In this document: positions 19,501 to 33,908 of the stretch, piece by piece | Layout of the letters: each line of letters starts with the position of its first letter | How positions within the stretch are numbered: position 1 is the stretch's first letter | DNA from: Draconibacterium orientale | GTDB taxonomy: Bacteria > Bacteroidota > Bacteroidia > Bacteroidales > Prolixibacteraceae | DNA length: 64,000 bases | Reading direction: 5' to 3' | Assembly (NCBI RefSeq): GCF_000626635.1 | Contig: NZ_CP007451.1 | Span: 3,640,501-3,704,500, forward strand | Notes under the pieces: generated by a model | Told to the model about the DNA's origin: nothing | The model's database searches: none | The model's input: the letters and a program-made list of their open reading frames with translations, nothing else | Position numbers and translations under genes: made by a program

Positions 19501-20091
19501 AACTGGTGGTCGATTCACGAGGTTTACGCTTTTGGCGATGAAGATGCGATTAGTGTTAGCGGCATTGGTTTTAACAAACAACAGATTGGCTTGGCTATTG
19601 ACAGTGTTTACGAAGCTCAGCCTGTTTTCTCTCCTGAAAGTGCCGCCAATAAAACGGTATTCTGGAAATCAAGTAATTCAAATATTGCAACTGTGGATAC
19701 CACTGGTAATATAACCGGAATTTCGACGGGTACAGCCACAGTAACTGCGGTTAGTATGGACGGGATAAAAAAGGCAAGTCTTACTGTAGTTGTTAGTATT
19801 GATGGGGTGACTTCGATTGGCGAGATTACAAATGCTGATAGTAACGCTATAAAATTGTTTCCTAATCCGGTTTCGGAAAAGGTTACTTTAAGCTACCATA
19901 CAAATAATACGGAAGAAGTTTTTGTAGAGCTATTTAGCCTAAACGGAATGGCTGTAAAATCAACATCATTTCACTCGCATCCGGGTGAAAACTTGTCATC
20001 TTTATCATTGGCCGAACTTACTCCGGGAGTATATTTTGTGCGGTTTCGAACAGGTGAAGGTAGACGGCTTAGAAAGCTTATAGTGCAATAG
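16537..20091 (+). CDS. Tandem right-handed beta-helix enzyme with discoidin, Ig-like and T9SS domains
   Basis: Secreted protein of 1184 residues; start ATG 16537 chosen because MNQISVNKPLLITTILLLLFSSALTAQ is a clean signal peptide. Two pectate-lyase-3/GH28-related beta-helix domains occur in tandem (about 30-450 and 460-830). Each opens with the same pattern: DFGITGDGVTDVTVQFQTLL...FVPEGKY, and FDAVADGVTDNTVAIQAALD...LPPGKY. Then follow a discoidin/CBM32-like domain (about 865-1000, WFTINFGKPEKIEQIIMDV), a bacterial Ig-like group 2 domain (about 1005-1090) and a T9SS sorting domain (IKLFPNPVSEKVTLSY to KLIVQ). Two joined helices recall GH55 exo-beta-1,3-glucanases, but the activity is not proven. 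It has a paralogue at 40179-42992. Confidence 0.85.
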   Translation: MNQISVNKPLLITTILLLLFSSALTAQNWRLVDSKYPTIDNVVIAYSVADFGITGDGVTDVTVQFQTLLNELGALGGGTLFVPEGKYVIEGNLLLPKGITLRGEWKKPEKGAPVEGTILMAYAGRGDENATPFITMEPSSAVMDLAIWYPEQSPSAITPYPPSIEFGKPNYFGNENCNAKNITLVNSYAGVVFSRKNGGTCPTINGIYGTPLSRGVEIDNIVDVGRIEWIDFSPDYWAGSGLPNSPSVDGSHKAWIYENGTGVVMRRNDWSYTCFVNVEGYNKGFHAVESVTSPGAQPNGHNYSMTFTNCKTGVDISSANSVGLMFTGIKTVDCETGIGVAQTASGVVQLHSCSLDATKNAISIHESSSTRLMVLQSEINSGAVDIKGGTFTITDCDLNNPAPQINLTKNTRAIITGNRFAQEVQIEESSIFKSIIDHTPVNMKQLPEIMEVKPETHKPSRLELYVATEAPFDAVADGVTDNTVAIQAALDQAATDGGGIVFLPPGKYKVLGNLVIPSNVELKGSVDVSTTPTGPGSILEVYADRNNPEGEPFLKLSENSGIRGIVFNYPEQLLSDLPSVGKYPYCVQATGSDTYMINIGMRAVSKGVDLFTYPCHNHYIDYIAGHAFDIGIRVGGGTTDGRIYNTQFNVIAYGAGDESKYGSWPNSAGDSGPAYDYGFANFTFMVLGDCQNQLLYNDFHYGSHNGMILSDIDGTGPSGLSIGSGIDGARNALIINAVGNNGFDFVNTQIVSIGDQDTKYIETGTGYTSGVALFNADFWGNPSNGIRLNGGELTLQQANINQPGQQRMALISGGTLNIEASSVFPNNSLLAYGTESQFSIHSSVVDPTGIDTTQCVVWENNLYNTPAISLESALSRTSWTVSASNNSGVATRAIDGTASTRWDTNGSQTPGQWFTINFGKPEKIEQIIMDVAASPADSPQKYEFYVSDNGTDWYGPGAAGAGADVMTIVSFPSSTVQYVRIKQTGSKGNWWSIHEVYAFGDEDAISVSGIGFNKQQIGLAIDSVYEAQPVFSPESAANKTVFWKSSNSNIATVDTTGNITGISTGTATVTAVSMDGIKKASLTVVVSIDGVTSIGEITNADSNAIKLFPNPVSEKVTLSYHTNNTEEVFVELFSLNGMAVKSTSFHSHPGENLSSLSLAELTPGVYFVRFRTGEGRRLRKLIVQ

Positions 20092-20106
20092 CAAGATTGT
20101 TAAAAA

Positions 20107-21804
20107 ATGAAGCGAGTTAATAAAAATATAAGACCCGGTTGGACCAAGTTGAAACTTATGGTGATTCTGCTCGGCTGTGCTGTGGCAGCGAAAGCACAGA
20201 ATCCATTTGTTGAGAGTATTTACACTGCCGATCCTTCAGCACATGTATGGTCAGACGGTCGGTTATACGTTTATCCCTCGCATGATATTGCGCCTCCACA
20301 AGGATGCGATTTGATGGATCAGTACCATGTTTTTTCAACCGATGATATGGTAAACTGGACAGATCATGGAGAAATTCTTCGGGCAGACGACGTTGACTGG
20401 GGAAGGGCAGAAGGTGGTTTTATGTGGGCACCCGATTGTGCTTTCAAGGACGGAACTTACTACTTTTATTTTCCGCATCCTTCAGGCAGTGGCGATCAAT
20501 GGAACTCAACCTGGAAAATTGGCGTGGCCACAAGTTCTGAACCGGCAGCGAATTTCGAAGTTCAGGGCTATATCGAAGGCTTAAAATCGATGATCGATCC
20601 TTGTGTATTTGTCGATGACGACGGGCAGGCCTATTTATATTATGGCGGCGGAAACCTTTGCGAAGCCGGAAAGCTAAAAGACAATATGATGGAAATTGAC
20701 GGGCAGATGCAGCAAATGCAGGGCCTCGTTGATTTTCATGAAGCAACTTGGGTGCACAAGTACAACGGGATGTATTATCTCTCGTATTCCGATAATAATA
20801 ACGATGGAGGAAACCAACTGCGTTACGCGGTAAGTGATAGCCCGCTTGGTCCGTGGACCTACAGAGGCGTTTATATGAAGCCAACAGGCAGCCCGACTAA
20901 CCATGGCTCGATAGTAGAATATAAAGGCCAGTGGTATGCTTTTTATCACAACAGCATTTTGTCGGGGCATCCATGGTTGCGATCCATTTGTGTCGATTCG
21001 CTTTTTTATAATCAAGACGGCACCATACAGGAGGTTACGCAAACGCGTGAACACGGAACCCCATATTTAGAACCAGCACATTCGATTCCTGGAACCATCG
21101 AAATGGAAGACTACGACCAGGGAGGCCAGGGGAAAGCATACAGTGACTCAGATACATCAAATAACGGAAATGACTATCGCGAAAATGAAGGTGTGGATGT
21201 GGAGATGAACAGTCCGGGAAACTACAATATTGGCTGGACCACTGGTGGCGAGTGGATAGAATACACGGTTGAGGTTACTGAATCAGCACTTTACAGTTTT
21301 GAGTTGCGAGCGGCTTCTCCCGATGGTAATGGAAAGTTTCATTTAAAAATTGATGAAGTAAATGTTTCCGGTTCTGTAGTTATTCCTTCAACAGGGGGCT
21401 GGCAAAACTATCAGTCATTTACCGTACCGGATATTCCGTTGAAAGAAGGAACGCATATTATTCAGTTTTTTGAAGAAACCGGAGGTTTCAATCTCGATAA
21501 AATGATTGTGACCAAAAGTGGCGTACTTTCTTCCGGGAAGAATATTGTAAACAGCGAAACGGATATTATGCTGTTCCCAAACCCTGCAAAAGGTTCGGTG
21601 TCGTTAAGGTTTCAGGGAATTTCTACTCAGGATCTTCATCTTGAAATTCGCAACATAAACGGTCAGCTGGTAAAGAGCTTTGAAAAACAGAACAGTAGCG
21701 AGGGAATTCAGTTGGACATCAGCGGAATCTCTGCCGGTACTTATTTTTTGGTTCTGAGATCGGATAGAAAACAGCTTTCAAAAAAACTTATGGTGTACGA
21801 ATAA
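20107..21804 (+). CDS. GH43 glycosidase with CBM6 and T9SS sorting domain
   Basis: Extracellular or surface-anchored glycosidase of 565 residues, probably an arabinofuranosidase, xylosidase or galactosidase-type inverting enzyme. After a signal peptide (cleaved near AKA-QNPF), a five-bladed GH43 propeller spans about 32-320. The three family acids are visible: base D42 (YTADPSAHVW), pKa modulator D164 (SMIDPCVF) and acid E212 (DFHEATWVHK). A CBM6-like domain follows (about 330-465, IEMEDYDQGGQGKAYSD, YNIGWTTGGEWIEYTVEV), then a T9SS C-terminal domain (MLFPNPAKGSVSLRF to KLMVYE). It lies 15 bases after the beta-helix gene. It is a close paralogue of the two single-domain GH43 proteins at 21850 and 30612, the only one with extra domains. 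Confidence 0.9.
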   Translation: MKRVNKNIRPGWTKLKLMVILLGCAVAAKAQNPFVESIYTADPSAHVWSDGRLYVYPSHDIAPPQGCDLMDQYHVFSTDDMVNWTDHGEILRADDVDWGRAEGGFMWAPDCAFKDGTYYFYFPHPSGSGDQWNSTWKIGVATSSEPAANFEVQGYIEGLKSMIDPCVFVDDDGQAYLYYGGGNLCEAGKLKDNMMEIDGQMQQMQGLVDFHEATWVHKYNGMYYLSYSDNNNDGGNQLRYAVSDSPLGPWTYRGVYMKPTGSPTNHGSIVEYKGQWYAFYHNSILSGHPWLRSICVDSLFYNQDGTIQEVTQTREHGTPYLEPAHSIPGTIEMEDYDQGGQGKAYSDSDTSNNGNDYRENEGVDVEMNSPGNYNIGWTTGGEWIEYTVEVTESALYSFELRAASPDGNGKFHLKIDEVNVSGSVVIPSTGGWQNYQSFTVPDIPLKEGTHIIQFFEETGGFNLDKMIVTKSGVLSSGKNIVNSETDIMLFPNPAKGSVSLRFQGISTQDLHLEIRNINGQLVKSFEKQNSSEGIQLDISGISAGTYFLVLRSDRKQLSKKLMVYE

Positions 21805-21849
21805 CATTTGGAAAAAGTAATTCAAACAAAATAATTTAATCGGTATAAA

Positions 21850-22839
21850 ATGATTGTAAGAAAATTAAAATTGCTAATTGCAAAAAGAAACATCTTGAGA
21901 AGTTTAATGCTGGGAACGCTACTTGTTGTTGGCATTTCGGCACAAGCGCAAAAAAATCCGTTTGTAACGCACATGTACACTGCCGATCCGTCGGCACACG
22001 TTTGGGAAGACGGACGTTTGTATGTTTATCCTTCGCACGATGTAGCTCCTCCACGCGGGTGTGATTTAATGGATCGTTACCATGTTTTTTCAACAGATGA
22101 TATGGTAAACTGGGTAGATCATGGTGAGATATTAAGCTCTGAAGATGTGGATTGGGGACGCCCTGAAGGTGGTTTTATGTGGGCTCCTGATTGTGCTTAT
22201 AAAGATGGAACTTACTATTACTATTTCCCTCACCCAAGCGGATCGGAATGGAATAATACCTGGAAAATAGGTGTGGCTACCAGTAAATACCCGGCAAAAG
22301 ACTTTAAAGTTCAGGGATACATTAAAGGATTGAAATCGATGATTGACCCTTGTGTTTTCATTGATGATGATGGTGAGGTATATTTCTACTACGGTGGTGG
22401 CGGAAAATGTGAAGGTGGAAAACTGAAAGACAATATGATGGAAATTGACGGGGAAATGAAACCGATGGAAGGTTTGGAAGATTTTCATGAAGCTACCTGG
22501 GTACATAAGTACAATGGAGTTTACTATTTGTCTTATTCGGATAATCACGACGAAGGAAACGACACAGAAGGAGTAAAAGGCGATAACAGAATGCGTTATG
22601 CCACAAGTGATAATCCTCTGGGACCATGGAAATACCAGGGCATATACATGCAACCAACCGACTCCTACACCAATCACGGTTCAATTGTAGAATTTAAAGG
22701 ACAGTGGTATACATTTTACCACAACAGTTCATTATCTGCTAAAAATGGTGAATTCAACGATTGGTTACGTTCTATCTGCGTAGATAAATTGTACTACAAT
22801 GAGGATGGAACTATTAAAATGGTAAATCAAACCAACTAA
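21850..22839 (+). CDS. GH43 glycosidase, single-domain
   Basis: Exported GH43 enzyme of 329 residues, nearly colinear with residues 32-320 of the preceding gene product. The signal peptide ends near AQA-QKNPF. The catalytic triad is conserved: D46 (YTADPSAHVW), D166 (SMIDPCVF) and E214 (DFHEATWVHK). It lacks the CBM6 and T9SS tail, so it should stay in the periplasm or be released by another route, and would trim oligosaccharides after import. It is 45 bases downstream of the CBM6-bearing copy, suggesting tandem duplication. The GH43 subfamily and linkage cannot be fixed without comparison to characterised enzymes. Confidence 0.9.
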   Translation: MIVRKLKLLIAKRNILRSLMLGTLLVVGISAQAQKNPFVTHMYTADPSAHVWEDGRLYVYPSHDVAPPRGCDLMDRYHVFSTDDMVNWVDHGEILSSEDVDWGRPEGGFMWAPDCAYKDGTYYYYFPHPSGSEWNNTWKIGVATSKYPAKDFKVQGYIKGLKSMIDPCVFIDDDGEVYFYYGGGGKCEGGKLKDNMMEIDGEMKPMEGLEDFHEATWVHKYNGVYYLSYSDNHDEGNDTEGVKGDNRMRYATSDNPLGPWKYQGIYMQPTDSYTNHGSIVEFKGQWYTFYHNSSLSAKNGEFNDWLRSICVDKLYYNEDGTIKMVNQTN

Positions 22840-22857
22840 TTCGCATAGTTTTTTAAT

Positions 22858-22894
22858 ATCGGCAGTCTCCGTTTATCGGAGGCTTCGCCGGTAT
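22858..22894. repeat. Imperfect hairpin after GH43 gene
   Basis: Inner stem CTCCG/CGGAG (22867-22871 with 22877-22881), extended by GGC...GCC pairs on both sides. It is not followed by a T-run, so it may be an mRNA 3'-end stabilising or processing structure instead of a classical terminator. Confidence 0.45.
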
Positions 22895-22947
22895 TTATGA
22901 ACGACCTTTTTAACCTGAACGATAAACCTAAAACTTAATCTGAAATG

Positions 22948-22991
22948 CGCATAAATTAATATTCAGAATCAACTTGTTTGGTATTTATGCG
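22948..22991. promoter_or_regulatory. Spaced inverted repeat upstream of ceramidase-like gene
   Basis: CGCATAAAT (22948-22956) and ATTTATGCG (22983-22991), perfect nine-base arms with a 26-base spacer. The right arm runs straight into a TTCCATCTT word also found at 26188 and 30480. The position, about 75-120 bases before the gene at 23067, suits an operator, but no regulator has been linked to it. Confidence 0.3.
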
Positions 22992-23066
22992 AATTCCATC
23001 TTTTTATTAGGTCGATTGAAAAGCGATTATTTATTCAATTAGAAAAGTTAATTAAAAATCAGATAG

Positions 23067-24392
23067 ATGGAAAAGATGAAATTAATCGTTAAATTATTGA
23101 TTGTGTTACTAATTACAGTACGGCCTGTATTTAGTTTCGCAGCCACAGCCGATTTGCTTGCAGGTACGGCAAAAGTAAATATTACATCATCCTCTGAAAT
23201 GCCTTTGCACGATTCGTTGTATGCAAGGGTGTTACTGCTTAAAACATCCGAACAGGAATTGGCCTTTATTGCTGTTGACCAGGGAATTTTTACGAGTGAT
23301 AAACTCGTGCAGAAATGTAAAGAAAAACTGGGGATTTCACAGGTACTTATTTCTTCCTCGCATACGCATTCCAGTGGTGGTAGCGATAAAGAGTATATCG
23401 ATTCACAAATTATAAAGGCGCTACAAGAAGCTGAAAAATCGATGTTTCCGGCCAGGATCTCGGCTGGAAGCAGAACATTCCCTCAACTGGGATTTAATCG
23501 CTTAATTGTTCGTGAAGATGGACATTCTCGCGAATCCTGGTTTTCCGATGAACATTATACTTCGGAAAATCCCGAACGTATACCTTTTGGCCCCGTTGAT
23601 CCGGATGTTGGCGTTATAAAGGTGGAAGATTTAAATGGAACGCCACGGGCAATCTTAATGAATTATGCTATGCATTCGGATATTGTTTGCAGTAACTACG
23701 AAATATCTGCAGATTATCCGGGAGTAGCCTGTCGCAAGGTGGAAGAAGCTTTTGGCGACGATATGACCTGTCTTTTTGTTCAGGGAGCCGGTGGCGACAT
23801 TGAATCGCTGATTATAAGCTCTCGCCGCAAGGGCCCGGATGATACCTTTAAATCGGATTACCGGACAATCGAGCGGGTTGGTGAATTACTGGCATGGGAA
23901 ACAATTAAGCTTGCAAAAAGTATTGAAGCAGAAGCAGATATAAAACCATCCATCAGCCTGATGACCGATTCGCTTCATTTTAACGGGCGTTTTAAACACG
24001 ATGCCGACTATGATATTCATATTTCCACTATTTTAATAAACAATAACATTGTGATTGCAACTTGCCCGGGCGAACCATTTATTCGGCTTCAACTCGATTT
24101 AAAACGGAAAATCAGGGAAGCCGGAGGAACACCATTTTTATTTGGCTATACCTGGTCTGAAGGAACCTGGCCAAACTATATTCCCGATATTTTATCGGCT
24201 GCCCGAGGCGGTTACGGTGCCGATCAAAGCTGGCCGGAACCCATTGCGGTTGGTGCCGGTGAGACGATTATGAACAAACATTTCGAGAATTACCTTCGGA
24301 TTAATGGATTAATGCGAACCGATTACGGACCTGTTGGTTTTAAGGGAGGCTCGCAATGGAAAACTATAGAGATACCTTCACAGGAGAACTAA
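23067..24392 (+). CDS. Neutral/alkaline ceramidase-like exported hydrolase
   Basis: Exported protein of 441 residues with signal peptide MEKMKLIVKLLIVLLITVRPVFSFA. It matches the catalytic domain of neutral ceramidases. Zn-ligand-type motifs are SSHTHSSGG (residues 97-105) and NYAMHSDIV, followed by SADYPGVACRKVEE and FVQGAGGDIESL, which correspond to the nucleophile-loop and active-site regions. The C-terminal Ig-like domain of true ceramidases is absent. Family members in PULs are common, but their substrates are mostly unknown; an amide or ester decoration on the glycan is an inference. It ends 22 bases before the next GH43 lipoprotein gene, with which it probably forms a unit. Confidence 0.8.
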   Translation: MEKMKLIVKLLIVLLITVRPVFSFAATADLLAGTAKVNITSSSEMPLHDSLYARVLLLKTSEQELAFIAVDQGIFTSDKLVQKCKEKLGISQVLISSSHTHSSGGSDKEYIDSQIIKALQEAEKSMFPARISAGSRTFPQLGFNRLIVREDGHSRESWFSDEHYTSENPERIPFGPVDPDVGVIKVEDLNGTPRAILMNYAMHSDIVCSNYEISADYPGVACRKVEEAFGDDMTCLFVQGAGGDIESLIISSRRKGPDDTFKSDYRTIERVGELLAWETIKLAKSIEAEADIKPSISLMTDSLHFNGRFKHDADYDIHISTILINNNIVIATCPGEPFIRLQLDLKRKIREAGGTPFLFGYTWSEGTWPNYIPDILSAARGGYGADQSWPEPIAVGAGETIMNKHFENYLRINGLMRTDYGPVGFKGGSQWKTIEIPSQEN

Positions 24393-24414
24393 TAACATCG
24401 TAAAAACTAGTGAA

Positions 24415-26133
24415 ATGGTTAAGAATTCAGTATTTCTCATTTTTCTGATAATTGCATTTGTGGCTTGTAAACAAGAGCCTGAGTCGAAAATTATACAAGA
24501 TATTAAAACGATATGCAATCCGCTGGATTTGAGTTACCGTTTTCAGTTGGACGAACCTTCGCGCAGGGAAGCGGCCGATCCAACAGTGGTATTGTTTCAG
24601 GACGAGTATTACCTGTTTGCTTCAAAATCGGGCGGATACTGGTATTCGTCAGATCTGGCAGACTGGACTTTTGTAAAAACCGATGAAATTCCAACCGAAC
24701 AATATGCGCCAACAGCCCTGGTCATTAACGATACGATGTATTTTATGGCATCATCGAATTCTATTTTTAAAGCTACAGACTTAAAAGGAGGTAAATGGAA
24801 ATTAGCGGCAGAACTTCCATTTGGTGTAACCGACCCGGCTCTTTTTCTCGACGATGACCAGCGGCTCTATTTTTATTGGGGATGTTCGGATAAAGAACCT
24901 ATTTACGGCGTAGAACTGGATTATCGAAACAACTTTCAGCCTGTTGGCGATAGAGTTGAACTGATGCATGCCGATACCAAAAATCATGGATGGGAAGTTC
25001 CGGGAGATTATAACAATTTGCTTGACAATGCGCCATGGATTGAAGGTGCCTGGATGAATAAACACAATGGCAAATATTACCTGCAATATGCCGGGCCCGG
25101 TACACAGTTTAAAAGCTACTCTGATGGCGTATATACTTCGGATCATCCGCTGGGTCCGTTTACGCTGGCCGTAAATAATCCTTTTGCCTGTCATCCCGAA
25201 GGTTTTGCTACAGGTGCAGGGCACGGAAGTACTTTCGAAGACAAGTATGGAAATTTCTGGCACATTGGTACAGTTACCATTTCGCAAAAACACATGTTCG
25301 AGCGCCGCCTTGCACTTTATCCGGCTTTTTTTGATGAGCAGGGAGAATTGTATTCAGACACCCGGTTTGGCGATTATCCGATGACCGTTCTTTCTGAAAA
25401 AGTGAAAAGCAAAGATGAAATTTTCCCGGGTTGGATGTTGCTTTCGTACAACAAACCAGTTTCTGTGCTAACAGAAGTTGATAGTTGTCCGAAGGAAAAT
25501 ATTACCGATGAGGACATTAGAACCTACTGGTCTGCGCAAAGCGGATCAAACCAATGGGCGGTAATTGATCTGGAAACAGAAAGCGATGTGTATGCTGTTC
25601 AAATTAATTTTGCCGAGCACAACACCAATGTTTACGACCGGCAACCACATTTTCGTTACCGTTATTCTGTTGATGTTTCGTCGGATAACAAAAACTGGCA
25701 AACGATTATCGATCGTTCTGATAACGAAACCGATAACTCGCATCCTTATATTCAGCTAAAATCAAAAGTAAGCTGCCGGTATATGCGGATAACCAACTAC
25801 GAAATACCAGCGGGTAATTTTGCGCTTTCAGGGTTTCGGGTTTTCGGTTTGGGGAACGGTGATAAACCTGCCTCAGTTTCTAACTTAAAGGTTGAGCGGC
25901 CTTCGGAAAACAGGCGTGTGGTCAATTTGAGTTGGGAAAAAACACCAGGTGCGGTTGGTTATCAAATTAGATATGGTGTAACAGAAAATAAGCTATATCA
26001 AAGCTATAAAGTATATAACGACACCGCTGTTACCATTAATAGCCTGAACGCAAACCGAATTTACTTTTTTGCGATAGAGGCTTTTAATGAAAATGGTGTA
26101 ACTGAAACTTCATCAATTATAAAAGTTGACTAA
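24415..26133 (+). CDS. GH43-like lipoprotein with discoidin and fibronectin III domains
   Basis: Lipoprotein of 572 residues (Cys 18 in IIAFVACKQ). The propeller domain (about 45-345) has the GH43 acids D55 (AADPTVVL), D140 (VTDPALFL) and E210 (APWIEGAWM), so it should be active. It is only distantly related to the three other GH43 proteins. A discoidin/F5-8C domain (about 350-475, WAVIDLETESDVYAVQINFAEHN ... CRYMRITNYEIPAGNFALSGFRVFG) and a fibronectin type III domain (about 485-572, SVSNLKVERPSENRRVVNLSWEKTPGAVGYQIRY) follow. The lipid anchor and binding domain suggest the outer surface or outer-membrane inner face. Linkage specificity unknown. Confidence 0.85.
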   Translation: MVKNSVFLIFLIIAFVACKQEPESKIIQDIKTICNPLDLSYRFQLDEPSRREAADPTVVLFQDEYYLFASKSGGYWYSSDLADWTFVKTDEIPTEQYAPTALVINDTMYFMASSNSIFKATDLKGGKWKLAAELPFGVTDPALFLDDDQRLYFYWGCSDKEPIYGVELDYRNNFQPVGDRVELMHADTKNHGWEVPGDYNNLLDNAPWIEGAWMNKHNGKYYLQYAGPGTQFKSYSDGVYTSDHPLGPFTLAVNNPFACHPEGFATGAGHGSTFEDKYGNFWHIGTVTISQKHMFERRLALYPAFFDEQGELYSDTRFGDYPMTVLSEKVKSKDEIFPGWMLLSYNKPVSVLTEVDSCPKENITDEDIRTYWSAQSGSNQWAVIDLETESDVYAVQINFAEHNTNVYDRQPHFRYRYSVDVSSDNKNWQTIIDRSDNETDNSHPYIQLKSKVSCRYMRITNYEIPAGNFALSGFRVFGLGNGDKPASVSNLKVERPSENRRVVNLSWEKTPGAVGYQIRYGVTENKLYQSYKVYNDTAVTINSLNANRIYFFAIEAFNENGVTETSSIIKVD

Positions 26134-26166
26134 TTGATTCAAAAAAAACTATAACCAATGAAACGA

Positions 26167-26184
26167 GTCCCGAATTATCGGGAC
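26167..26184. repeat. Perfect seven-base-pair hairpin in intergenic gap
   Basis: GTCCCGA-ATTA-TCGGGAC, 34 bases after the GH43 lipoprotein stop and 43 bases before the next start. No T-run follows. It may be an attenuating or RNA-processing hairpin. Confidence 0.5.
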
Positions 26185-26226
26185 GAGTTCCATCTTATAC
26201 CTTAGAAAACGAAAAATTTAAATAAG

Positions 26227-27474
26227 ATGAAAAACCGAAATCTATTGTTACTGATAATTTTTGCTACTGTTTTATTGAGTTGTGGCAGCCAGACTGAACG
26301 AGAAGAATTATATTATTTTGATGGGAACGGGATATCTGAAGAAGTTTTAAGCAATTATCTTGATCGCTCGGTAACAATGGCATTTTATCTTGTACCCGAA
26401 AAGCCTGAAGGACGAAGACAATATCCTTATCATGAAGATGATGTGAGGATGATTAAAAATATTGGTGCGAAATTTATCGGACGTTCCATTTACCGGTGGG
26501 GAGGCGAAAGCCGCTTAAACGAACCTGACTTTTGGAAAACCGCACAAGCTTTAATCGATACCCTCCATAATTTCGATCCCGAGATCATATTTCAGGGCTG
26601 TTTATTCGAAATTGTAACGCAGGATGTTAATAGCGTTAAAATTCCGGACTGGGTATTCGAGGGATTTGATTTGCCGGTTGAAGAACGAAATTTTTCGTAC
26701 GACAAAATGTTGAATAAAAGAGGTGTTATGGTTGATCACTGGCGCAAAGGCAGTAGTGTGCCGGATATAAGCAGGAAGGAAACACAACTATGGTTTTATT
26801 ACCTGGCCGGTGCCTATATAAATTTGGGATGCGAAGCTTTTCATTTAGGACAGGTTGAGTTAATTGGTATGAACGATCAGAAACGAGTAGCCTGGCAGAG
26901 CCTGTTAATGAAGATACGAGCATACGCAAAAGGGCATGCCCGGCGAAACTGGGTGATTCTTGACGCACATGTACCCAAAGGAGATATGATTAAAGATGGA
27001 GTTAGTCTGATCGATTTTAATTCATTTCCGCTGCGTATTAAAGAAATTCCGGAAAAACCATACGAATGCAAACTGGAAGAGAACTACCTTGATGCGCTGT
27101 ATAATAAAAGTAAAGGTTGTATTTCTCCCAGCGGCTGGTCATGCGATAGCCTGCCATATCTTGTTGAGTTTGATAATTACGGAAGAAATGGAGAACCAAA
27201 TGTCGCTGATACGACTTCGCACTTCGTTTGGGGATGGGACGAAATTTCGTGGTTTGCTCAGCAAGATGAACCAAGCAGAAATGCCTGGCTGGAATATGCA
27301 TACAACTGGATAAAAGACATCGACCCGAACGGCCACTTACAAATGCCGGTTAGCAGAATGTTATCTTGTCCAAACGAAACAGCAGGAAGCTACAGGGCCA
27401 ATACAAAAAGTGAAGCCTGTCCGATTGGCTATTCACAGGAAGAAACAATAAAACGAATTTGGAACGGTAATTAA
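26227..27474 (+). CDS. Unrecognised lipoprotein, possible TIM-barrel glycosidase
   Basis: Lipoprotein of 415 residues (signal MKNRNLLLLIIFATVLLSC, Cys 19). No family was recognised. The residue pattern resembles a TIM barrel: short hydrophobic strands each ending in polar or acidic residues, such as GAKFIGRSIYRWGGE, DPEIIFQGCLFEIVTQ, LGCEAFHLGQVELIG, ARRNWVILDAHVPKGD, LPYLVEFDNYGR and SHFVWGWDEISWF. Glu at the ends of CLFE and GQVE, and Asp/Glu in VEFD and WDE, are possible catalytic acids. The location between GH43 and the PUL regulator, and the lipid anchor, suggest a role in degrading the same glycan. It may belong to an uncharacterised glycoside hydrolase family. This is inference. Confidence 0.6.
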   Translation: MKNRNLLLLIIFATVLLSCGSQTEREELYYFDGNGISEEVLSNYLDRSVTMAFYLVPEKPEGRRQYPYHEDDVRMIKNIGAKFIGRSIYRWGGESRLNEPDFWKTAQALIDTLHNFDPEIIFQGCLFEIVTQDVNSVKIPDWVFEGFDLPVEERNFSYDKMLNKRGVMVDHWRKGSSVPDISRKETQLWFYYLAGAYINLGCEAFHLGQVELIGMNDQKRVAWQSLLMKIRAYAKGHARRNWVILDAHVPKGDMIKDGVSLIDFNSFPLRIKEIPEKPYECKLEENYLDALYNKSKGCISPSGWSCDSLPYLVEFDNYGRNGEPNVADTTSHFVWGWDEISWFAQQDEPSRNAWLEYAYNWIKDIDPNGHLQMPVSRMLSCPNETAGSYRANTKSEACPIGYSQEETIKRIWNGN

Positions 27475-27755
27475 GTTTCAGGAATTCCGTTTTCTGCAAA
27501 CTTTCATATCCGGGCTAAACTCTTTTTTGTTTTATATGTTAAATTAAAGGGGTGTATTAAAGCCAAAATGACCACAAGATTGCATCTGCCCGGTAGAATG
27601 TTTGTTTTGTTAGAAAACCAAGAGGAATATTGTATTATCTGGGTACAAACGTTTTAACGATTTGTACGTAGGATACAAGCCTCGGTTGATGTTTCAAAAC
27701 TATTTATATAACTCGGAAAATTTGATCCATTTTAATACATTTGGGTCTCTTAAAG

Positions 27756-30320
27756 ATGATAGATGTGAAATTATTAGTTTGTGTAAATGTTATTTTTCTT
27801 TTGTTAGCAACGAAAATATTTGCGCAAAATGAACTAAACTCAGGATTGTATTTTGCATCATCTGAGGTAGTGCAAGACCAGCGAACTTCCTTAAATCTTA
27901 CGCCTGAAGAAGCTATAAAACTAGCCGATGGTTTTAAGCTGGATTTTGATATTCAGTTAAGGTTGGGTGACGGTTATTATGGTTATGTTTTCCGAATCTT
28001 CGCGAACTCAACTGAAAATTTCGATTTTATTGTAAATTATGCATCAGAAAACGAGAATCTTTCCCTGGTTTTCAAAGAAAAAATCTTGTGTTCTTTTCGT
28101 TGGGAGGATGTTCCTGATTTCGACTATAACAAATGGTTTCATGTTACTTTTCAGCTTAATTCGGAACAACAGGATGTTGAAATTGGCATAAATGGAATTT
28201 CCAAAAAGGCATCGATCGATTTTGATGAAGAAGACCGTTTTGATATTCTATTTGGAATATCAAAAGCTACGCCTTTTCAAAGTACCGATGTATGCCCGAT
28301 GACTATAAAAAACATTCAGTTATACGATCGAAACGAAAAGATGGTCAGGAACTGGTTGTTATCAAAACATATCTTCAATGAAACCTACGATGAAATAGAA
28401 GGGGCTGTTGCGGTGGTCGATAATCCGAAATGGCTGATTGATGCACATTTATCGTGGGAAGAAGTTAACCATCTGAAGTTAAATGCATTTTACGGTGCAG
28501 TTAGCAACGAAAATACTGAGGAACTGTTTTTTGTTGATCAAGATTATATTCTTCGTTACAATCTGAATACAAGCGAGATAGATAGCATTCTTTACAAAGC
28601 AGGCAGCCCATACCGACAACTGAACGAGAAACATGTTGTTTACAATGCTTACACCAACGAAATATGGTCGTACAATCTGGATCAACCTGGAGTAAGCAAA
28701 TTTAGTTTTTCAAGCCAGGAATGGTCGGATGATCCGGTACAGATGGCCGAATCTAACTTTGGGCATCATAATAAAATTATTTCGCCTGTAGATAGTTCGC
28801 TGGTGGCTATTTTGGGATATGGGTTATACCGTTACAACAGTACGGTTTTTAATTATGATCCTGTAAATAACTCATGGGAAAAGTTTGACAGAAGTAACCA
28901 GATTGAACCGCGTTACCTGGCTGCTACAGGATTACTTAATGATGATACTTTGTTGGTATTTGGTGGATATGGAAGTAAAACCGGACGGCAGGAATTAACT
29001 CCTGGGGCGTATAACGATTTGTATTCGCTCGATCTTCATACTTTACAGTTCAGTAAAATGATGGACTATGAAGTTCCTGAAATTCCTTTTGTACCTGCAG
29101 AATCCCTGATTATAGACGATGACTCTACCAGCTTTTACACCCTGGTTTTCGATAATTCAAAATACAGTTCGACAATAAAACTGGCAAAATTTGGTATTTA
29201 TGAGTCGACTCAATTTATCTACCCTGATTCCATTGTGTTTGATTTTCAGGATACCGATTCGTGGTCGTACCTTTATTTGAATAAAAAATTACGAAAGTTA
29301 TTTGCAGTTACTACAAATAAGTCGGATGTTAAAATCTATTCGATGGCTTATCCGCCGCTTGTACCAGATGATGTGTTTCAGAAAGTGAAAGCAAAAAGGC
29401 AAAAGTCGGCTGGAAAAAATGGTAGTCCAATGCTTTTGCTTGCATTGGCACTGAGTGTTATGATAATAGTTTTGGCATATTTTTACGATAAACGAAAACG
29501 TAAAGTTGTTGTAAATGATGAGGGGAATTCAGAACCCGTTTCCTACGAAAAACAAATGTACCGGAAGCCAGAAAAGGTTAAAAAATCATCAGTTCTGTTT
29601 TTGGGAGGATTTCAAATTTATAGTGAATCAGGGGTAGACATTACCTCCGATTTTTCGCCAATGCTAAAACAGTTGTTTTTAATAATTTTCCTGAATACGA
29701 TTCACCGGGGAAAAGGAATCTCTTCTAAAAAACTGGATGAAACCTTGTGGTTTGATAAAACAGAAAAAAGTGCCCGAAACAATCGAAATGTAAATATAAG
29801 CAAACTTCGAAATGCAATTGAAGAGGTTGGAGGTTTAGAAATTGTTTATGAGAACTCGTACTGGAAACTGAAAATGTCGTCGAATATTTACTGCGACTAT
29901 TTGCATGTTTTGCGCATTACAACCAAATCAGATGACGAGCACCTTGACTTGAAGGATATTGCAACCCTTTACGGATTGCTGGATAAGGGCGAATTGCTAC
30001 CAAACCTTGAGATTGACTGGATTGACTCGTATAAAGCACAATATACCAATTCTGTAGTTGATTTTCTGGTGAAACTCTTGTCCCGGAAAGAACTCCAGGA
30101 TGATAAAAAAACGTTGTTACATATCGCCGACAATATTTTCTCGCTCGATTCATTGAATGAGGATGCATTGATTGTAAAATGTAAGATTCTTCACAAAGAT
30201 GGAAAAGGAAGTGTTGCTCTTAATGCTTACAATTCTTTCTGCAAAGAATATCAAAATCTACTCAACTCTCAATACCCTGCCTCATTCAAGGATGTACTGA
30301 CCGGTGATACCGATTCATGA
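27756..30320 (+). CDS. Membrane-bound Kelch/SARP-type sensor-regulator of the PUL
   Basis: Protein of 854 residues; start at ATG 27756 because MIDVKLLVCVNVIFLLLATKIFA is a signal peptide. The periplasmic part has a LamG/concanavalin-like domain (about 25-210, FKLDFDIQLRLGDGYYGYVF ... KNIQLYDR) and a Kelch-like propeller (about 240-545, NDDTLLVFGGYGSKTGR, FNYDPVNNSWEKF). One membrane helix (about 558-577) is followed by basic DKRKRK, placing the rest in the cytoplasm. Residues about 607-700 form an OmpR/SARP winged helix (LGGFQIYSESGVDI, KKLDETLWFDKTEKSARNNRNVNISKLRNAIEEVG). Residues about 715-850 look like a bacterial transcriptional activation (BTAD/TPR) domain. It is the only regulator inside the PUL, so it likely senses the glycan in the periplasm and binds PUL promoters directly. 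No kinase or receiver domain is present. Confidence 0.8.
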   Translation: MIDVKLLVCVNVIFLLLATKIFAQNELNSGLYFASSEVVQDQRTSLNLTPEEAIKLADGFKLDFDIQLRLGDGYYGYVFRIFANSTENFDFIVNYASENENLSLVFKEKILCSFRWEDVPDFDYNKWFHVTFQLNSEQQDVEIGINGISKKASIDFDEEDRFDILFGISKATPFQSTDVCPMTIKNIQLYDRNEKMVRNWLLSKHIFNETYDEIEGAVAVVDNPKWLIDAHLSWEEVNHLKLNAFYGAVSNENTEELFFVDQDYILRYNLNTSEIDSILYKAGSPYRQLNEKHVVYNAYTNEIWSYNLDQPGVSKFSFSSQEWSDDPVQMAESNFGHHNKIISPVDSSLVAILGYGLYRYNSTVFNYDPVNNSWEKFDRSNQIEPRYLAATGLLNDDTLLVFGGYGSKTGRQELTPGAYNDLYSLDLHTLQFSKMMDYEVPEIPFVPAESLIIDDDSTSFYTLVFDNSKYSSTIKLAKFGIYESTQFIYPDSIVFDFQDTDSWSYLYLNKKLRKLFAVTTNKSDVKIYSMAYPPLVPDDVFQKVKAKRQKSAGKNGSPMLLLALALSVMIIVLAYFYDKRKRKVVVNDEGNSEPVSYEKQMYRKPEKVKKSSVLFLGGFQIYSESGVDITSDFSPMLKQLFLIIFLNTIHRGKGISSKKLDETLWFDKTEKSARNNRNVNISKLRNAIEEVGGLEIVYENSYWKLKMSSNIYCDYLHVLRITTKSDDEHLDLKDIATLYGLLDKGELLPNLEIDWIDSYKAQYTNSVVDFLVKLLSRKELQDDKKTLLHIADNIFSLDSLNEDALIVKCKILHKDGKGSVALNAYNSFCKEYQNLLNSQYPASFKDVLTGDTDS

Positions 30321-30611
30321 GTTATTCGTATCCCAAATTTAATCATCGATAGTTCAGATAACCTCTGGCCTTTTTTTATTTGGTCGATAATCTGCTACCC
30401 GAAAGTGTCGAATTTTATCTTTTGGGTATTTTCTCAAATCACTTCTGTATGCGAAATTCAAAAGGATAATTCCGATTAATTCCATCTTTTTTCCTGATGT
30501 ATTAAAATTAATTGAGCTGTTTGCCAAAAATTAATGCATTTGTTAATCCCCGCATCCTTTATTTGAGCATTAATTATTTAAAACCAACTATTCATTAAAT
30601 ATTAGATCTGT

Positions 30612-31580
30612 ATGAAGACCAATAAGATTGATCAATCAAAGTTATATGTATCACTTTATTTCTTTGGCCTTGTTATTTCTTTAACGATGTTCTCCATCTT
30701 GTTAAACTCCAAAAGTGCATTTGCACAAAAAAATCCGTTTATCACGCATATGTACACCGCCGATCCGTCGGCCCATGTATGGGACGATGGGCGTTTGTAT
30801 GTTTATGCCTCGCATGATGTGGATCCTCCACGCGGTTGCGATTTGATGGATAAGTACCACGTTTTTTCTACCGATGATATGGTGAACTGGAAAGACCATG
30901 GCGAAATTTTACGTTCGGAAAACGTTGAATGGGGCCGCCCCGAAGGTGGATTTATGTGGGCTCCCGACTGTGCTTATAAAGATGGTGTTTACTATTTCTA
31001 CTATCCGCACCCAAGCGGAACCGACTGGAACAACACCTGGAAAGTAGGTGTGGCCTCCAGTAAAAAACCTGCTAAAAAGTTTAAAGATCAGGGATTCATG
31101 GAAGGAGTAGGTGGTTTTGCAATGATCGACCCTTGCGTTTTTATCGACGACGACGGACAGGCATATTTCTATTACGGCGGTGGAAGTAAATGCGAAGGAG
31201 CCAAACTAAAAGACAATATGATGGAGCTTGACGGCGAACTTCAGCCAATGGAAGGGCTGGAAGATTTTCATGAAGCTACCTGGGTGTTTAAAAGAAACGG
31301 AATTTACTACCTGACGTATGCCGACAACAACCGGGGCAATAACCAGCTTCGTTATGCGATGAGCAACAATCCGCTGGGGCCATGGGAATACAAAGGCATT
31401 TACCTCGAACCAACCGGTTGCGACACCAGTCATGGCTCAGTAGTAGAATACAAAAGCCAGTGGTACGCTTTTTACCACAATAAATCGATTTCAGGGCAGG
31501 GCAACCTTCGCTCTATTTGTGTAGATAAGTTGTATTTCAACGAAGACGGAACAATTCAAACCGTAATTCAAACCAAGTAG
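30612..31580 (+). CDS. GH43 glycosidase, third paralogue
   Basis: Exported GH43 enzyme of 322 residues with a long signal region (MKTNKIDQSKLYVSLYFFGL ... SAFAQKNPF). The catalytic acids are D51 (YTADPSAHVW), D173 (MIDPCVFI) and E221 (DFHEATWV). It is closely similar to the 21850 gene product along its whole length, with a small insertion (MEGVGGFAMIDP) before the second Asp. No CBM or T9SS tail, so probably periplasmic. It opens the gene run after the regulator; 37 bases separate it from the GH92 gene. Probably an arabinofuranosidase or xylosidase-type enzyme. Confidence 0.9.
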   Translation: MKTNKIDQSKLYVSLYFFGLVISLTMFSILLNSKSAFAQKNPFITHMYTADPSAHVWDDGRLYVYASHDVDPPRGCDLMDKYHVFSTDDMVNWKDHGEILRSENVEWGRPEGGFMWAPDCAYKDGVYYFYYPHPSGTDWNNTWKVGVASSKKPAKKFKDQGFMEGVGGFAMIDPCVFIDDDGQAYFYYGGGSKCEGAKLKDNMMELDGELQPMEGLEDFHEATWVFKRNGIYYLTYADNNRGNNQLRYAMSNNPLGPWEYKGIYLEPTGCDTSHGSVVEYKSQWYAFYHNKSISGQGNLRSICVDKLYFNEDGTIQTVIQTK

Positions 31581-31617
31581 TAAAAACGCTGCCTGTAAAA
31601 CAGGTAAAACATACCAC

Positions 31618-33882
31618 ATGAAATACAAACAGAAGAGAATGAAGATTATTTATACCGTTGTTGCCGCTTTGTTTCTGGCAACCGCAAACATGAGCTGTAC
31701 TTCCAGTCAGCCAACCACGCAGGAAACAAAAGAGCCTGTTGATTATGTCGACCCGTTTATCGGATCAGGCGGACACGGGCACGTTTTTGTCGGGGCCAAT
31801 GTACCGTTCGGCGCAGTCCAGGTAGGTCCCAATAATATTTACAAAGGCTGGGACTGGTGTTCGGGCTATCATTATTCCGACAGCCTTTTGATCGGTTTTT
31901 CCCAGCTACACTTAAGCGGAACAGGAATTGGCGATTTGGCCGACATATTGATTATGCCTTATACCGGCGAAGTTCGCCTGGACAAAGGCCGCCAGGAATA
32001 TCCGCACGGAGGCTATTTGTCAACCTTCAGCCACGATAACGAAACCGCAAAGCCGGGCTACTATTCAGTAACAATGGACAATGGCGTAAAAGTAGAGTTG
32101 GCAGCAACCGAAAGAGTAGGATTTCATCGCTATTATTTTCCAGAAGATGAACAGGCGCGTATTATTATCGATTTAAAAGAAGGGATTAACGACCGCTCAA
32201 CCGAAACATCGCTCGAACAACTTGACGACTATACCTTGGTGGGCACCCGTTTTTCTTCGGGATGGGCAAGAGAACAGCAGGTTTATTTTGCAGTGAAAAG
32301 CTCAGTTCCGCTTTCAAACCTTGAGATTTTTGATAACGACAAACCGCTTGAAGGAAAATCGGCAAAGGCAGCTGCAATCAAAGGATTAATCAGTTTTGAT
32401 GAGGCACCTGAAAAAGTAGAATGGAAAGTGGGGATCTCACCCGTAAGCACAGCGAATGCCTTAGCCAATATTGAAGCAGAAATTCCGGGATGGGATTTTG
32501 ATAAAGTAGTGGAATCGGCCAGGGAAAAATGGAACAACGAGCTGAAGAAAATCACGGTTGAAACAGCTAACCAGTCGGATAAACATATTTTCTACACTGC
32601 AGCTTATCATGCTTACATGCACCCTTCGTTGTTTAACGACCATAACGGCGATTACCAGGGAGCAGACAACCAGGTTTATACAAATGCCGGTTTTACCAAC
32701 TATACAATATTTTCGACCTGGGATACTTACCGTGCAGCACATCCTTTGTACACAATAACACAACCCGAAAGAATGAATGATTTTGTAAATACGATGCTGG
32801 CCATTTACGATCAGCAGGGGTATTTACCCATCTGGCACCTCAACGGTTACGAAACCGGAACGATGGTTGGTATCAGTAGCATCCAGGTTATTGCTGAAGC
32901 CTATCTGAAAGGTTACAGGGGTTTTGATGTCGATAAAGCCTGGGAAGCCGTAAAAAATACGGCCATGTCTGATTTGAGGGGGCTGAACTACCTGCGTGAG
33001 TTTAAACCGATTCCTGCAGATGACAAAAGTGTTGGGCGTGCAGTGGCACAAGCGCTGGAACTGTCCATTTCAGACGGGAGCATAGCAAAAATGGCAAAGG
33101 CAATGGGTAAAACCGAAGACTACGAATATTTTACCAAACGTGCTGAAAACTACAAGCTGTTTTATGAAGAGGCAGTTGGTTTTTTCCATGGAATAAACAA
33201 AGATGGCAGCTGGAGCAGGCCTTTTGATCCGCTGATTTCAAAACACAACCAGGCCAGGGATTATGCCGAAGGAAATGCATGGCAGTATTTGTGGCTGGTA
33301 CCGCAAGACGTTCAGGGACTGGTTGATTTACTGGGAGGAGAGGAGCGGTTTAACGCCCGCCTCGACAGCTTTTTTACCCTTGAAGTAGAAGACGAATCAG
33401 AGGTGCTGGTTGATCTTACCGGCCTAATCGGTCAGTATGCACACGGAAACGAGCCGAGCCACCACATCTCTTATTTATACAGCTACACCGGGCAACAGTG
33501 GAAGACCGCTGAAAAAGTGCGGTACATCATGGATGAGTTTTACCACGATGATCCGGACGGGGTGATTGGCAACGAAGACTGCGGGCAAATGTCGGCCTGG
33601 TATGTTTTCTCTTCGCTAGGTTTTTACCCGGTTTTTCCTGCTTCGTGCGAATATGTATTTGGCAGCCCGTTGTTTGATAAAGCTGAAATTCATTTGGAAG
33701 GGGGAAAAAGCTTTGTTGTTGAGGCCGAAAATAATAGCGAAAAAAATATTTACATCCAATCGGTTGAGTTAAATGGTGAACCTTATCGTATTAATTATAT
33801 CCGTCATGAGGATATTTTGAATGGAGGAACACTCAAATTTGTGATGGGGCCGGTTCCTAATAAGGATTTCGGGAAAATGTAA
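31618..33882 (+). CDS. GH92 alpha-mannosidase lipoprotein
   Basis: Calcium-dependent exo-alpha-mannosidase family member of 754 residues, lipid-anchored (ATANMSC, Cys 27; an internal ATG at 31639 is an equally good start). The N-terminal beta-sandwich starts PVDYVDPFIGSGGHGHVFVGANVPFGAVQVGP, as in nearly all GH92. The helical catalytic domain contains FSTWDTYRAAHPL, AEGNAWQYLWLVP (catalytic acid Glu), GNEPSHHISYLY and GNEDCGQMSAWYVFSSLGFYPV, with the general-base Asp. All expected motifs are present and length is normal. It removes alpha-linked mannose from glycans. Next gene starts 27 bases later. Confidence 0.93.
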   Translation: MKYKQKRMKIIYTVVAALFLATANMSCTSSQPTTQETKEPVDYVDPFIGSGGHGHVFVGANVPFGAVQVGPNNIYKGWDWCSGYHYSDSLLIGFSQLHLSGTGIGDLADILIMPYTGEVRLDKGRQEYPHGGYLSTFSHDNETAKPGYYSVTMDNGVKVELAATERVGFHRYYFPEDEQARIIIDLKEGINDRSTETSLEQLDDYTLVGTRFSSGWAREQQVYFAVKSSVPLSNLEIFDNDKPLEGKSAKAAAIKGLISFDEAPEKVEWKVGISPVSTANALANIEAEIPGWDFDKVVESAREKWNNELKKITVETANQSDKHIFYTAAYHAYMHPSLFNDHNGDYQGADNQVYTNAGFTNYTIFSTWDTYRAAHPLYTITQPERMNDFVNTMLAIYDQQGYLPIWHLNGYETGTMVGISSIQVIAEAYLKGYRGFDVDKAWEAVKNTAMSDLRGLNYLREFKPIPADDKSVGRAVAQALELSISDGSIAKMAKAMGKTEDYEYFTKRAENYKLFYEEAVGFFHGINKDGSWSRPFDPLISKHNQARDYAEGNAWQYLWLVPQDVQGLVDLLGGEERFNARLDSFFTLEVEDESEVLVDLTGLIGQYAHGNEPSHHISYLYSYTGQQWKTAEKVRYIMDEFYHDDPDGVIGNEDCGQMSAWYVFSSLGFYPVFPASCEYVFGSPLFDKAEIHLEGGKSFVVEAENNSEKNIYIQSVELNGEPYRINYIRHEDILNGGTLKFVMGPVPNKDFGKM

Positions 33883-33908
33883 ATGTTTAATTAACTAATT
33901 ATTTAACG

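What the first reader, a model, noticed from the sequence alone, without database searches (positions are those of the whole stretch)
22948..30488. Recurrent TTCCATCTT word in three intergenic regions and a spaced inverted repeat
TTCCATCTT occurs at 22994-23002, 26188-26196 and 30480-30488, each upstream of a PUL gene; the first directly follows a perfect CGCATAAAT/ATTTATGCG repeat and the third has a similar TATGCGAA upstream. It could be part of a shared regulatory site, though AT-rich DNA makes chance matches likely.
Basis: seen in the sequence. Interest (0 to 1): 0.28.

Follow-up and report, generated by a model that had tools for sequence, protein, structure and literature searches.

The report
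Mobile hairpin element inserted at start codons
One of the three repeated words lies inside a tiny (about 70-110 base) hairpin-forming piece of DNA that occurs dozens of times in this bacterium and its relatives, mostly directly before the start codon of a gene, and comparisons of related species show it present or absent to the exact base, as a mobile element would be.

Summary

Site 2 (26188) lies in a 69-bp element (26158-26226) ending at the start codon of the next gene. It belongs to a family of roughly 65-110-bp elements, ATGAAACGAG-hairpin-GTTCCATCTTAT-(A-rich)-ATAAG|ATGAA. A covariance model finds 23 copies at E<0.01 in 2.06 Mb of this genome and matches in 56 of 101 genomes tested; Rfam 15 has no such family. 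The start codon pairs with the element, and that helix covaries. At 7 loci (13 filled/empty comparisons) orthologous genes of sister species carry or lack it to the base, each time at ATGAA.

Site 1 with the inverted repeat is probably a decayed copy: it shares 18 nt with a good copy elsewhere, but its model score is weak (E about 1).

Site 3 is not conserved and matches nothing; probably chance.

Best reading: a non-autonomous mobile element targeting ATGAA that recreates the start codon and leaves a structured leader with a short upstream reading frame. A REP or IS200/IS605-type enzyme is the likeliest mover but was not found, and single-strand folding does not favour the strand it would need.

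The parts
26158..26226 (+). Complete class-I element, 69 bp from the left ATGAA to the base before the start codon
   Evidence: 98.2 bits, E=2e-18 in 547 kb (this copy is one of the 20 the model was built from, and was the DNA query that found most of the others); absent to the base in D. mangrovi
26162..26189 (+). Helix P1: AAC-GA-GTCCCGA / TCGGGAC-GA-GTT imperfect hairpin with a 2x2 GA/GA internal loop
   Evidence: RNAalifold returns it on the MAFFT alignment A2 without being given a structure; RNA fold z=-4.76 for 26150-26240
26191..26198 (+).
   Evidence: Pairs with 26222-26229; four neighbouring pairs of P2 have changes on both sides
26222..26229 (+). ATAAGATG, 3' strand of helix P2, including the start codon ATG 26227-26229 of the next gene
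26227..27474 (+). Gene behind the element: 415-aa protein with a lipoprotein-like N-terminus (by eye), no Pfam match
22940..23078 (+). Probable decayed class-II copy, from CTGAAATG through the inverted repeat and TTCCATCTTTT to the ATG at 23076-23078
   Evidence: R1: 19 bits, E=0.98 in 547 kb, ending at this ATG; the D. mangrovi ortholog is hit separately at 18.6 bits. With filters off: 16.5 bits, E=0.095 in 14 kb, but that alignment ends at 23021, short of the start codon. Shares ATGCGAATTCCATCTTTT with the good copy L207:3277-3379. Not among the R2 matches at E up to 1
22948..22991 (+).
   Evidence: full 9-bp form not kept in D. mangrovi
30480..30488 (+). Third TTCCATCTT; not part of the element on present evidence
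   Evidence: No model match here; not conserved in D. mangrovi; fold z=0.04

Best explanation
The word at 26188 is part of a short non-autonomous mobile element that inserts at the pentamer ATGAA, mostly at gene starts, so that the element's right end recreates the start codon. Shown: many copies with one architecture in this genome and its relatives; ATGAA at the ends of nearly all copies examined; precise presence/absence between orthologous genes; tandem copies that share an ATG; a hairpin and a second helix that pairs with the start codon, with covariation. Inferred, and less sure (about 0.35): movement by a single-strand (HUH/Y1) transposase as in IS200/IS605 and REP elements. Read on the lower strand, the element lies 3' of TTCAT, ends with TTCAT, has an imperfect hairpin, and carries just 5' of the hairpin foot ATAAGATGGAAC, which is complementary (with one unpaired or mismatched base) to both junctions, TTCAT|CTTAT and GTTTCAT|, as guide sequences are. 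Inferred effect: the gene's own ribosome entry region now precedes a short upstream reading frame (MKRVPNYRDEFHLIP in the window) and the real start codon is held in a helix, which should change or couple translation of the gene. Site 1 is probably an old, decayed insertion of the longer (class II) kind; site 3 is probably chance.
For: Family: R2 finds 17 matches at E<0.01 in 1.264 Mb and 6 in a further 0.8 Mb of the own genome, about 57 per genome by extrapolation; matches in 56 of 101 genomes: the own one, 34 of 36 same-genus, 15 of 24 other same-family and 6 of 40 other same-order genomes (at most 41 candidates scored per genome, so its per-genome numbers are lower bounds). Precise insertion: 13 filled/empty comparisons at 7 loci (three each for fumC, the metB-like and the glgB-like gene, so not independent); the 20 nt upstream of the left ATG match the empty ortholog ungapped at a mean of 15.15 of 20, against 6.0-9.2 at shifts of 1-6 bases; all empty sites read ATGAA; fumC of this genome against G030: 40 of 40 upstream and 38 of 40 downstream around a 95-bp difference. 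Target: of 55 copies examined 51 end in ATGAA and 44 open at least 50 codons or reach the locus end from the model's 3' end (two of the 44, L045 and L220, have a model end that is not ATG), while 250 of 644 first ATGs of long ORFs are followed by AA. Tandem copies sharing an ATG: L135 and L132, with L140 similar. Structure: RNAalifold on the MAFFT alignment returns both helices, 6 of 18 pairs with changes on both sides; covariation score 0.207 against 0.101 +/- 0.012 shuffled and at most 0.052 when slid. Site 1: GCGARTTCCAT occurs 7 times in 1.264 Mb; 6 lie inside model matches, the seventh is site 1.
Against: No transposase with these ends was found: in about 2 Mb of own-genome stretches a motif scan found three Y1-like genes (one confirmed by Pfam), none with the element within 1.5 kb; the model has no match in the 20-kb stretches of two of them and two matches about 15 kb from the third. 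The scan could miss a divergent enzyme, and 60% of the genome was not seen. Strand test: as single-stranded DNA the gene-sense strand folds better than the lower strand in 6 of 6 copies tried, and the lower strand of the class-II copies is not special (z -1.03, -0.77, -1.52); this speaks against the lower-strand reading. G.T against A.C pairs give no clear strand: P1 8 to 2 for the sense strand in 20 copies, P2 6 to 8 in 52 of 54 copies. The direction of change (insertion or precise loss) is not shown; at fumC the filled state needs two changes on a poorly resolved gene tree, and the identity upstream against G030 sits beside a coding sequence of only 88.4% identity, so local recombination is likely. 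Some pairs are weak: galM and one glgB-like pair match 11 of 20 upstream bases. One covariation measure, further pair types, is not above shuffles (174 of 500). No transcript, translation or movement data. For site 1 the model score alone is not significant. The bare word TTCCATCTT is a poor marker: of 21 in 1.2 Mb, 1 lies in a model match.
Confidence: 0.75

Rival explanations
1. A cis-acting translational regulator (RNA switch or protein-binding leader): P2 hides the start codon and P1 with its loop is the sensor; spread by duplication and selection, not by a transposase.
For: P2 includes the start codon and covaries; the gene-sense strand folds best; copies sit at orthologous genes across species, e.g. 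before ribosomal protein L15 in five genomes and prephenate dehydratase in two; class-II loops share loose CAC- and TTAAAAT-like sequence (by eye).
Against: The ten downstream proteins run through Pfam share no evident pathway; base-precise empty sites at 7 loci; tandem copies; 7 of 55 copies stand before no long reading frame.
Confidence: 0.14
2. A site-specific recombination unit of integron type: folded single-strand site (two arm pairs, unpaired spacer, variable loop) moved by a tyrosine recombinase.
For: AAC.../...GTT arms, a small unpaired spacer and a loop of very variable size resemble attC (recalled); the same pentamer at both ends; tandem arrays.
Against: The junction lies at ATGAA, not at GTT; the units carry no cassette gene; the attC consensus (recalled) is only partly met, by eye.
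Confidence: 0.08
3. One reading: operator of a PUL regulator, perhaps of the membrane protein encoded at 27741-30320.
For: Three PUL leaders share the word; the candidate regulator gene lies between sites 2 and 3.
Against: Site 2 belongs to an element found before unrelated genes; site 3 is not conserved in D. mangrovi; the word ends 65, 31 and 124 positions before the three ORF starts.
Confidence: 0.03

Closest known systems
REP elements with TnpA-REP (RAYT) transposases, especially the Bacteroidetes subclass 2.6 with 'atypical secondary structures' (PMC6006769, passages seen)
   Same: Short imperfect hairpins, tens of copies per genome, extragenic, a guide-like sequence 5' of the hairpin foot on one strand, no coding capacity
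   Different: No GT[AG]G foot; delimited by ATGAA at both ends and mostly at start codons; the gene here that resembles subclass 2.6 (NHFH against the published NH[LIV]H, YIHQNP as published) is flanked by other palindromes
IS200/IS605 elements and their non-autonomous derivatives
   Same: Insertion beside a short fixed target, base-precise empty site, guide-like complementarity to both junctions (guide mechanism from passages of PMC6006769; precise excision recalled)
   Different: One hairpin plus a long-range helix, not two subterminal hairpins; no transposase inside; both junctions carry the same pentamer; sense strand folds better
HEARO RNA elements (recalled: inserted after ATGA or GTGA, now linked to IscB)
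   Same: ATGA target, structured, mobile (all recalled)
   Different: No credible match to an Rfam family in window 20000-34000 or in 16 element loci; much shorter; no nuclease gene inside
Integron attC sites (recalled)
   Same: Folded single-strand site with unpaired spacer and variable loop
   Different: Junction at ATGAA, no cassette genes

Membership tests
REP / RAYT system | Many short palindromic extragenic copies per genome | tested here: met
   23 matches at E<0.01 in 2.064 Mb
REP / RAYT system | GT[AG]G tetranucleotide at the hairpin foot | tested here: not met
   None in alignments A2 and A3; feet without it are described for subclass 2.6 (PMC6006769 passages)
REP / RAYT system | Cognate transposase gene flanked by the repeat | tested here: inconclusive
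   Three Y1-like genes by motif in about 2 Mb of the own genome, none with the element within 1.5 kb; the rest of the genome was not examined
IS200/IS605 non-autonomous element | Insertion beside a fixed short target with base-precise empty site | tested here: met
   13 comparisons at 7 loci
IS200/IS605 non-autonomous element | Subterminal hairpins at both ends | tested here: not met
   One hairpin P1 plus helix P2
IS200/IS605 non-autonomous element | Guide sequence on the transferred strand pairing with the junctions | tested here: inconclusive
   Complementarity is in the sequence and P2 covaries, but the lower strand folds worse than the sense strand in 6 of 6 copies
Known Rfam family | Match to a covariance model | tested here: not met
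   16 element loci: only two eukaryotic families, both below gathering score, E 0.49 and 0.54; window 20000-34000: one eukaryotic family at E 4.4
PUL regulator operator | Shared conserved site in all leaders of the regulon | tested here: not met
   Of the three sites only site 1 is conserved in D. mangrovi
Integron attC | Recombination at GTT of the R box | tested here: not met
   Junction is at ATGAA; definition recalled

The most novel reading that the evidence does not exclude
A family of mobile elements whose inner sequence is the complement of the start codon: it homes on ATGAA at gene starts, re-supplies the start codon, and so installs the same structured leader and mini reading frame in front of dozens of unrelated genes, rewiring their translation across a bacterial family without breaking them.
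Probability: 0.35. Interest if true: 0.8.

Novelty: new variant of a known kind. Interest (0 to 1): 0.62.

Why it matters
Mobile elements normally harm or skirt genes. One that targets the start codon and restores it can invade gene leaders almost harmlessly and alter translation of many genes at once. It would account for a repeated structured leader seen in most of the genus, gives natural with/without pairs for measuring how leader structure affects translation in a phylum reported to lack Shine-Dalgarno sites in general (PMC3155529, start of abstract in a search listing), and calls for its unknown enzyme.

Tried and rejected
Shared PUL operator: rejected, because the three sites behave differently between this genome and D. 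mangrovi. The 24-nt block TTATGCGAATTCCATCTTTTTATT as a conserved operator: found only in this genome and D. mangrovi among 101 genomes at up to 3 mismatches, and the same intergenic region also holds an identical run of 30 nt, so the block is not special by itself. Relatives of the 23067 gene outside the genus (G043 with only about 87 bp upstream, G085, L069-L071) lack the word upstream.

Leader peptide: the frame from the left ATG is not conserved; it may stop at once (MKRA, MKRT, MKRP), stop near the gene start, or run into the gene. A conserved peptide is unlikely.

Known RNA family: none. Viral contigs: class-I pattern 0, class-II pattern 1 contig, not followed up.

Autonomous copy with distant ends: none seen by eye in the listing (window and L035-L066 only). 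Transposase scans used motif patterns in six frames. One search also met a Y1-like protein in L031 of another genome; its flanks were not examined.

Strand test by folding and by G.T/A.C counts: inconclusive to unfavourable for the lower-strand model.

Rows left out of counts: the 55 copies leave out L145 (second L15 ortholog), the second L135 copy, L225:4210 (same place as L109), L055 (two weak matches), L057:394-450 and the antisense match in the window. The 13 comparisons leave out the empty fumC sites of G002, G009 and G029 seen. Only loci already fetched could be compared for empty sites.

Literature: nine searches were answered; none of the titles or abstract starts listed describes a start-codon-targeted element. 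Passages of PMC6006769 and PMC3733652 were seen. Subscription papers and preprints are not held and supplements could not be read, so the 'atypical structures' of PMC6006769 could include this element.

Full report
What was claimed. The word TTCCATCTT is at the three stated places and the 9-bp inverted repeat is perfect. The word is over-represented in the window (8 against 0.87) and absent from 53 kb of other intergenic DNA of the same genome, but since it was chosen after being seen, simulations make it unremarkable for the window as a whole and only mildly unusual for the PUL leaders alone.

Context. The window lies in a single-contig 5.13-Mb genome. The region holds SusC/SusD-like genes, GH43, GH92, GH3, GH95 and other enzymes, and a kelch-type protein.

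Phylogenetic test. Aligning the leaders with D. mangrovi: site 1 lies in a block kept 24 of 24, but the inverted repeat around it is not kept in full; site 2 lies in a stretch that D. mangrovi lacks; site 3 is changed (ATTCCATCTTTT to ACTCCTACTTTT), while the promoter-like block just downstream of it is kept. One shared operator is thus unlikely.

The element. The stretch missing in D. mangrovi has a related copy elsewhere in the genome, and a DNA search returned many matches in same-genus genomes (weak ones may be chance). Forty loci were fetched; most show one architecture: ATGAAAC-GA-(stem)-loop-(stem)-GA-GTTCCAT CTTAT ... ATAAG ATG, where the last ATG is usually the start codon of a gene. 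Class I has a GTCCCGA/TCGGGAC-like stem and a short loop; class II has GCATG/CATGC-like stems and a long loop. Twenty class-I copies were aligned. RNAalifold, given no structure, returns both helices, with covariation above shuffled and slid controls on most measures (also on the larger, model-fitted alignment).

Number and range. The models were built from 20 and 44 copies. In 2.064 Mb of the own genome R2 finds 23 matches at E<0.01. Across relatives it finds matches in 56 of 101 genomes, the own one included. Rfam has no credible match.

Precise presence and absence. Two species (this one and G034) are filled and five close orthologs (G030, G005, G002, G009, G029) are empty. A comparison of the fetched loci gave five more loci with filled and empty orthologs, and the window's own site against D. 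mangrovi is the seventh; I compared 13 pairs over the 7 loci. The upstream match is 15.15 of 20 at the exact junction and 8.5-9.2 at a shift of one base. The 13 empty sites compared all read ATGAA. The own genome and G034 carry fumC copies that by eye differ by three substitutions and a 2-nt gap, closer than their coding sequences (86.4%), and the filled state needs two changes on a tree whose forks are mostly unresolved.

Target and surroundings. Of 55 copies examined, 51 end in ATGAA, and 44 open a long reading frame from the model end (two of them with an end that is not ATG); of the other 11, two are first units of a tandem pair, two have misplaced model ends, and seven stand before no long frame. 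Tandem units share the ATG. Ten downstream proteins were run through Pfam: fumarase, alpha-amylase/branching-enzyme type, Cys/Met-metabolism PLP enzyme, prephenate dehydratase, ribosomal protein L15, P-II, aldose epimerase, DUF302, ABC transporter, SusD. This fits insertion at ATGAA with survival mostly where it restores a start codon; whether the enzyme itself favours start codons is not shown.

Mechanism. On the lower strand the element follows TTCAT and ends in TTCAT, and 5' of its hairpin foot lies ATAAGATGGAAC, complementary to both junctions apart from one unpaired or mismatched base. IS200/IS605 and REP elements are described as using a guide 5' of the hairpin foot that pairs with the target flanking the left end and with the last bases of the right end (PMC6006769, passages). 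That is the ground for proposing a Y1 transposase. Against it: no such gene flanked by these ends was found in the part of the genome examined, and as single-stranded DNA the gene-sense strand folds better than the lower strand in 6 of 6 copies; wobble-pair counts are undecided. The mobile nature rests on the empty sites, not on this mechanism.

Site 1. The model gives 19 bits (E about 1) from 22940 to 23081 and, separately, 18.6 bits at the D. mangrovi ortholog, both ending at the same start codon; with filters off the best alignment ends earlier, and R2 does not list it. GCGARTTCCAT occurs 7 times in 1.264 Mb: six inside model matches and once at site 1; the good copy in L207 shares 18 nt with site 1. 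The distance to the start codon is longer than in good copies and its fold is not special (z=-0.93). I take it as a decayed class-II copy, about 75% likely.

Site 3. No model match, no conservation, no special fold. Probably chance.

Effect. In the window copy the left ATG opens MKRVPNYRDEFHLIP, whose stop codon ends 21 bases before the gene's ATG; that ATG is paired in P2. An effect on translation is inferred only.

Noticed in passing
window 27741-30320 (+), likely start 27756: Kelch-type protein with a hydrophobic stretch and a C-terminal region (residues about 606-852) that matches many proteins in relatives; perhaps a membrane-bound regulator of the PUL.
   Followed up: partly
window 27642-27666: Palindrome-like GTACAAACGTTTTAACGATTTGTAC upstream of that gene, largely conserved in D. 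mangrovi; candidate operator.
   Followed up: no
window 30505-30560: Block upstream of the GH43 gene at 30612 strongly conserved in D. mangrovi, with a TTG-N20-TGCATTTG promoter-like pair.
   Followed up: no
L276 (-), ORF from about base 10875 of the reverse strand: RAYT-like protein (NHFH, YIHQNP; no Pfam match) flanked by CTTAGCG/CGCATAA-type palindromes; perhaps a second, separate REP-like family. A similar word, CACTTAGCGCATAA, precedes the prephenate dehydratase gene in L113 and L122.
   Followed up: partly
L250 (-) and L279 (+) 17924: Two further Y1-type transposase genes (L250: PF01797, E 4.7e-27; L279 by motif only), without this element within 1.5 kb; a bare TTCCATCTT lies about 1 kb before the L250 gene.
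   Followed up: partly
L287:515-582 (-), IMG/VR contig IMGVR_UViG_3300011323_000053: One class-II-like pattern match in a 4.6-kb contig filed as viral; may be a host fragment.
   Followed up: no
L177 and L182, upstream of fumC: This genome and G030 are identical over at least 70 bp upstream of fumC although the coding sequences differ by about 12%, which suggests local recombination.
   Followed up: partly
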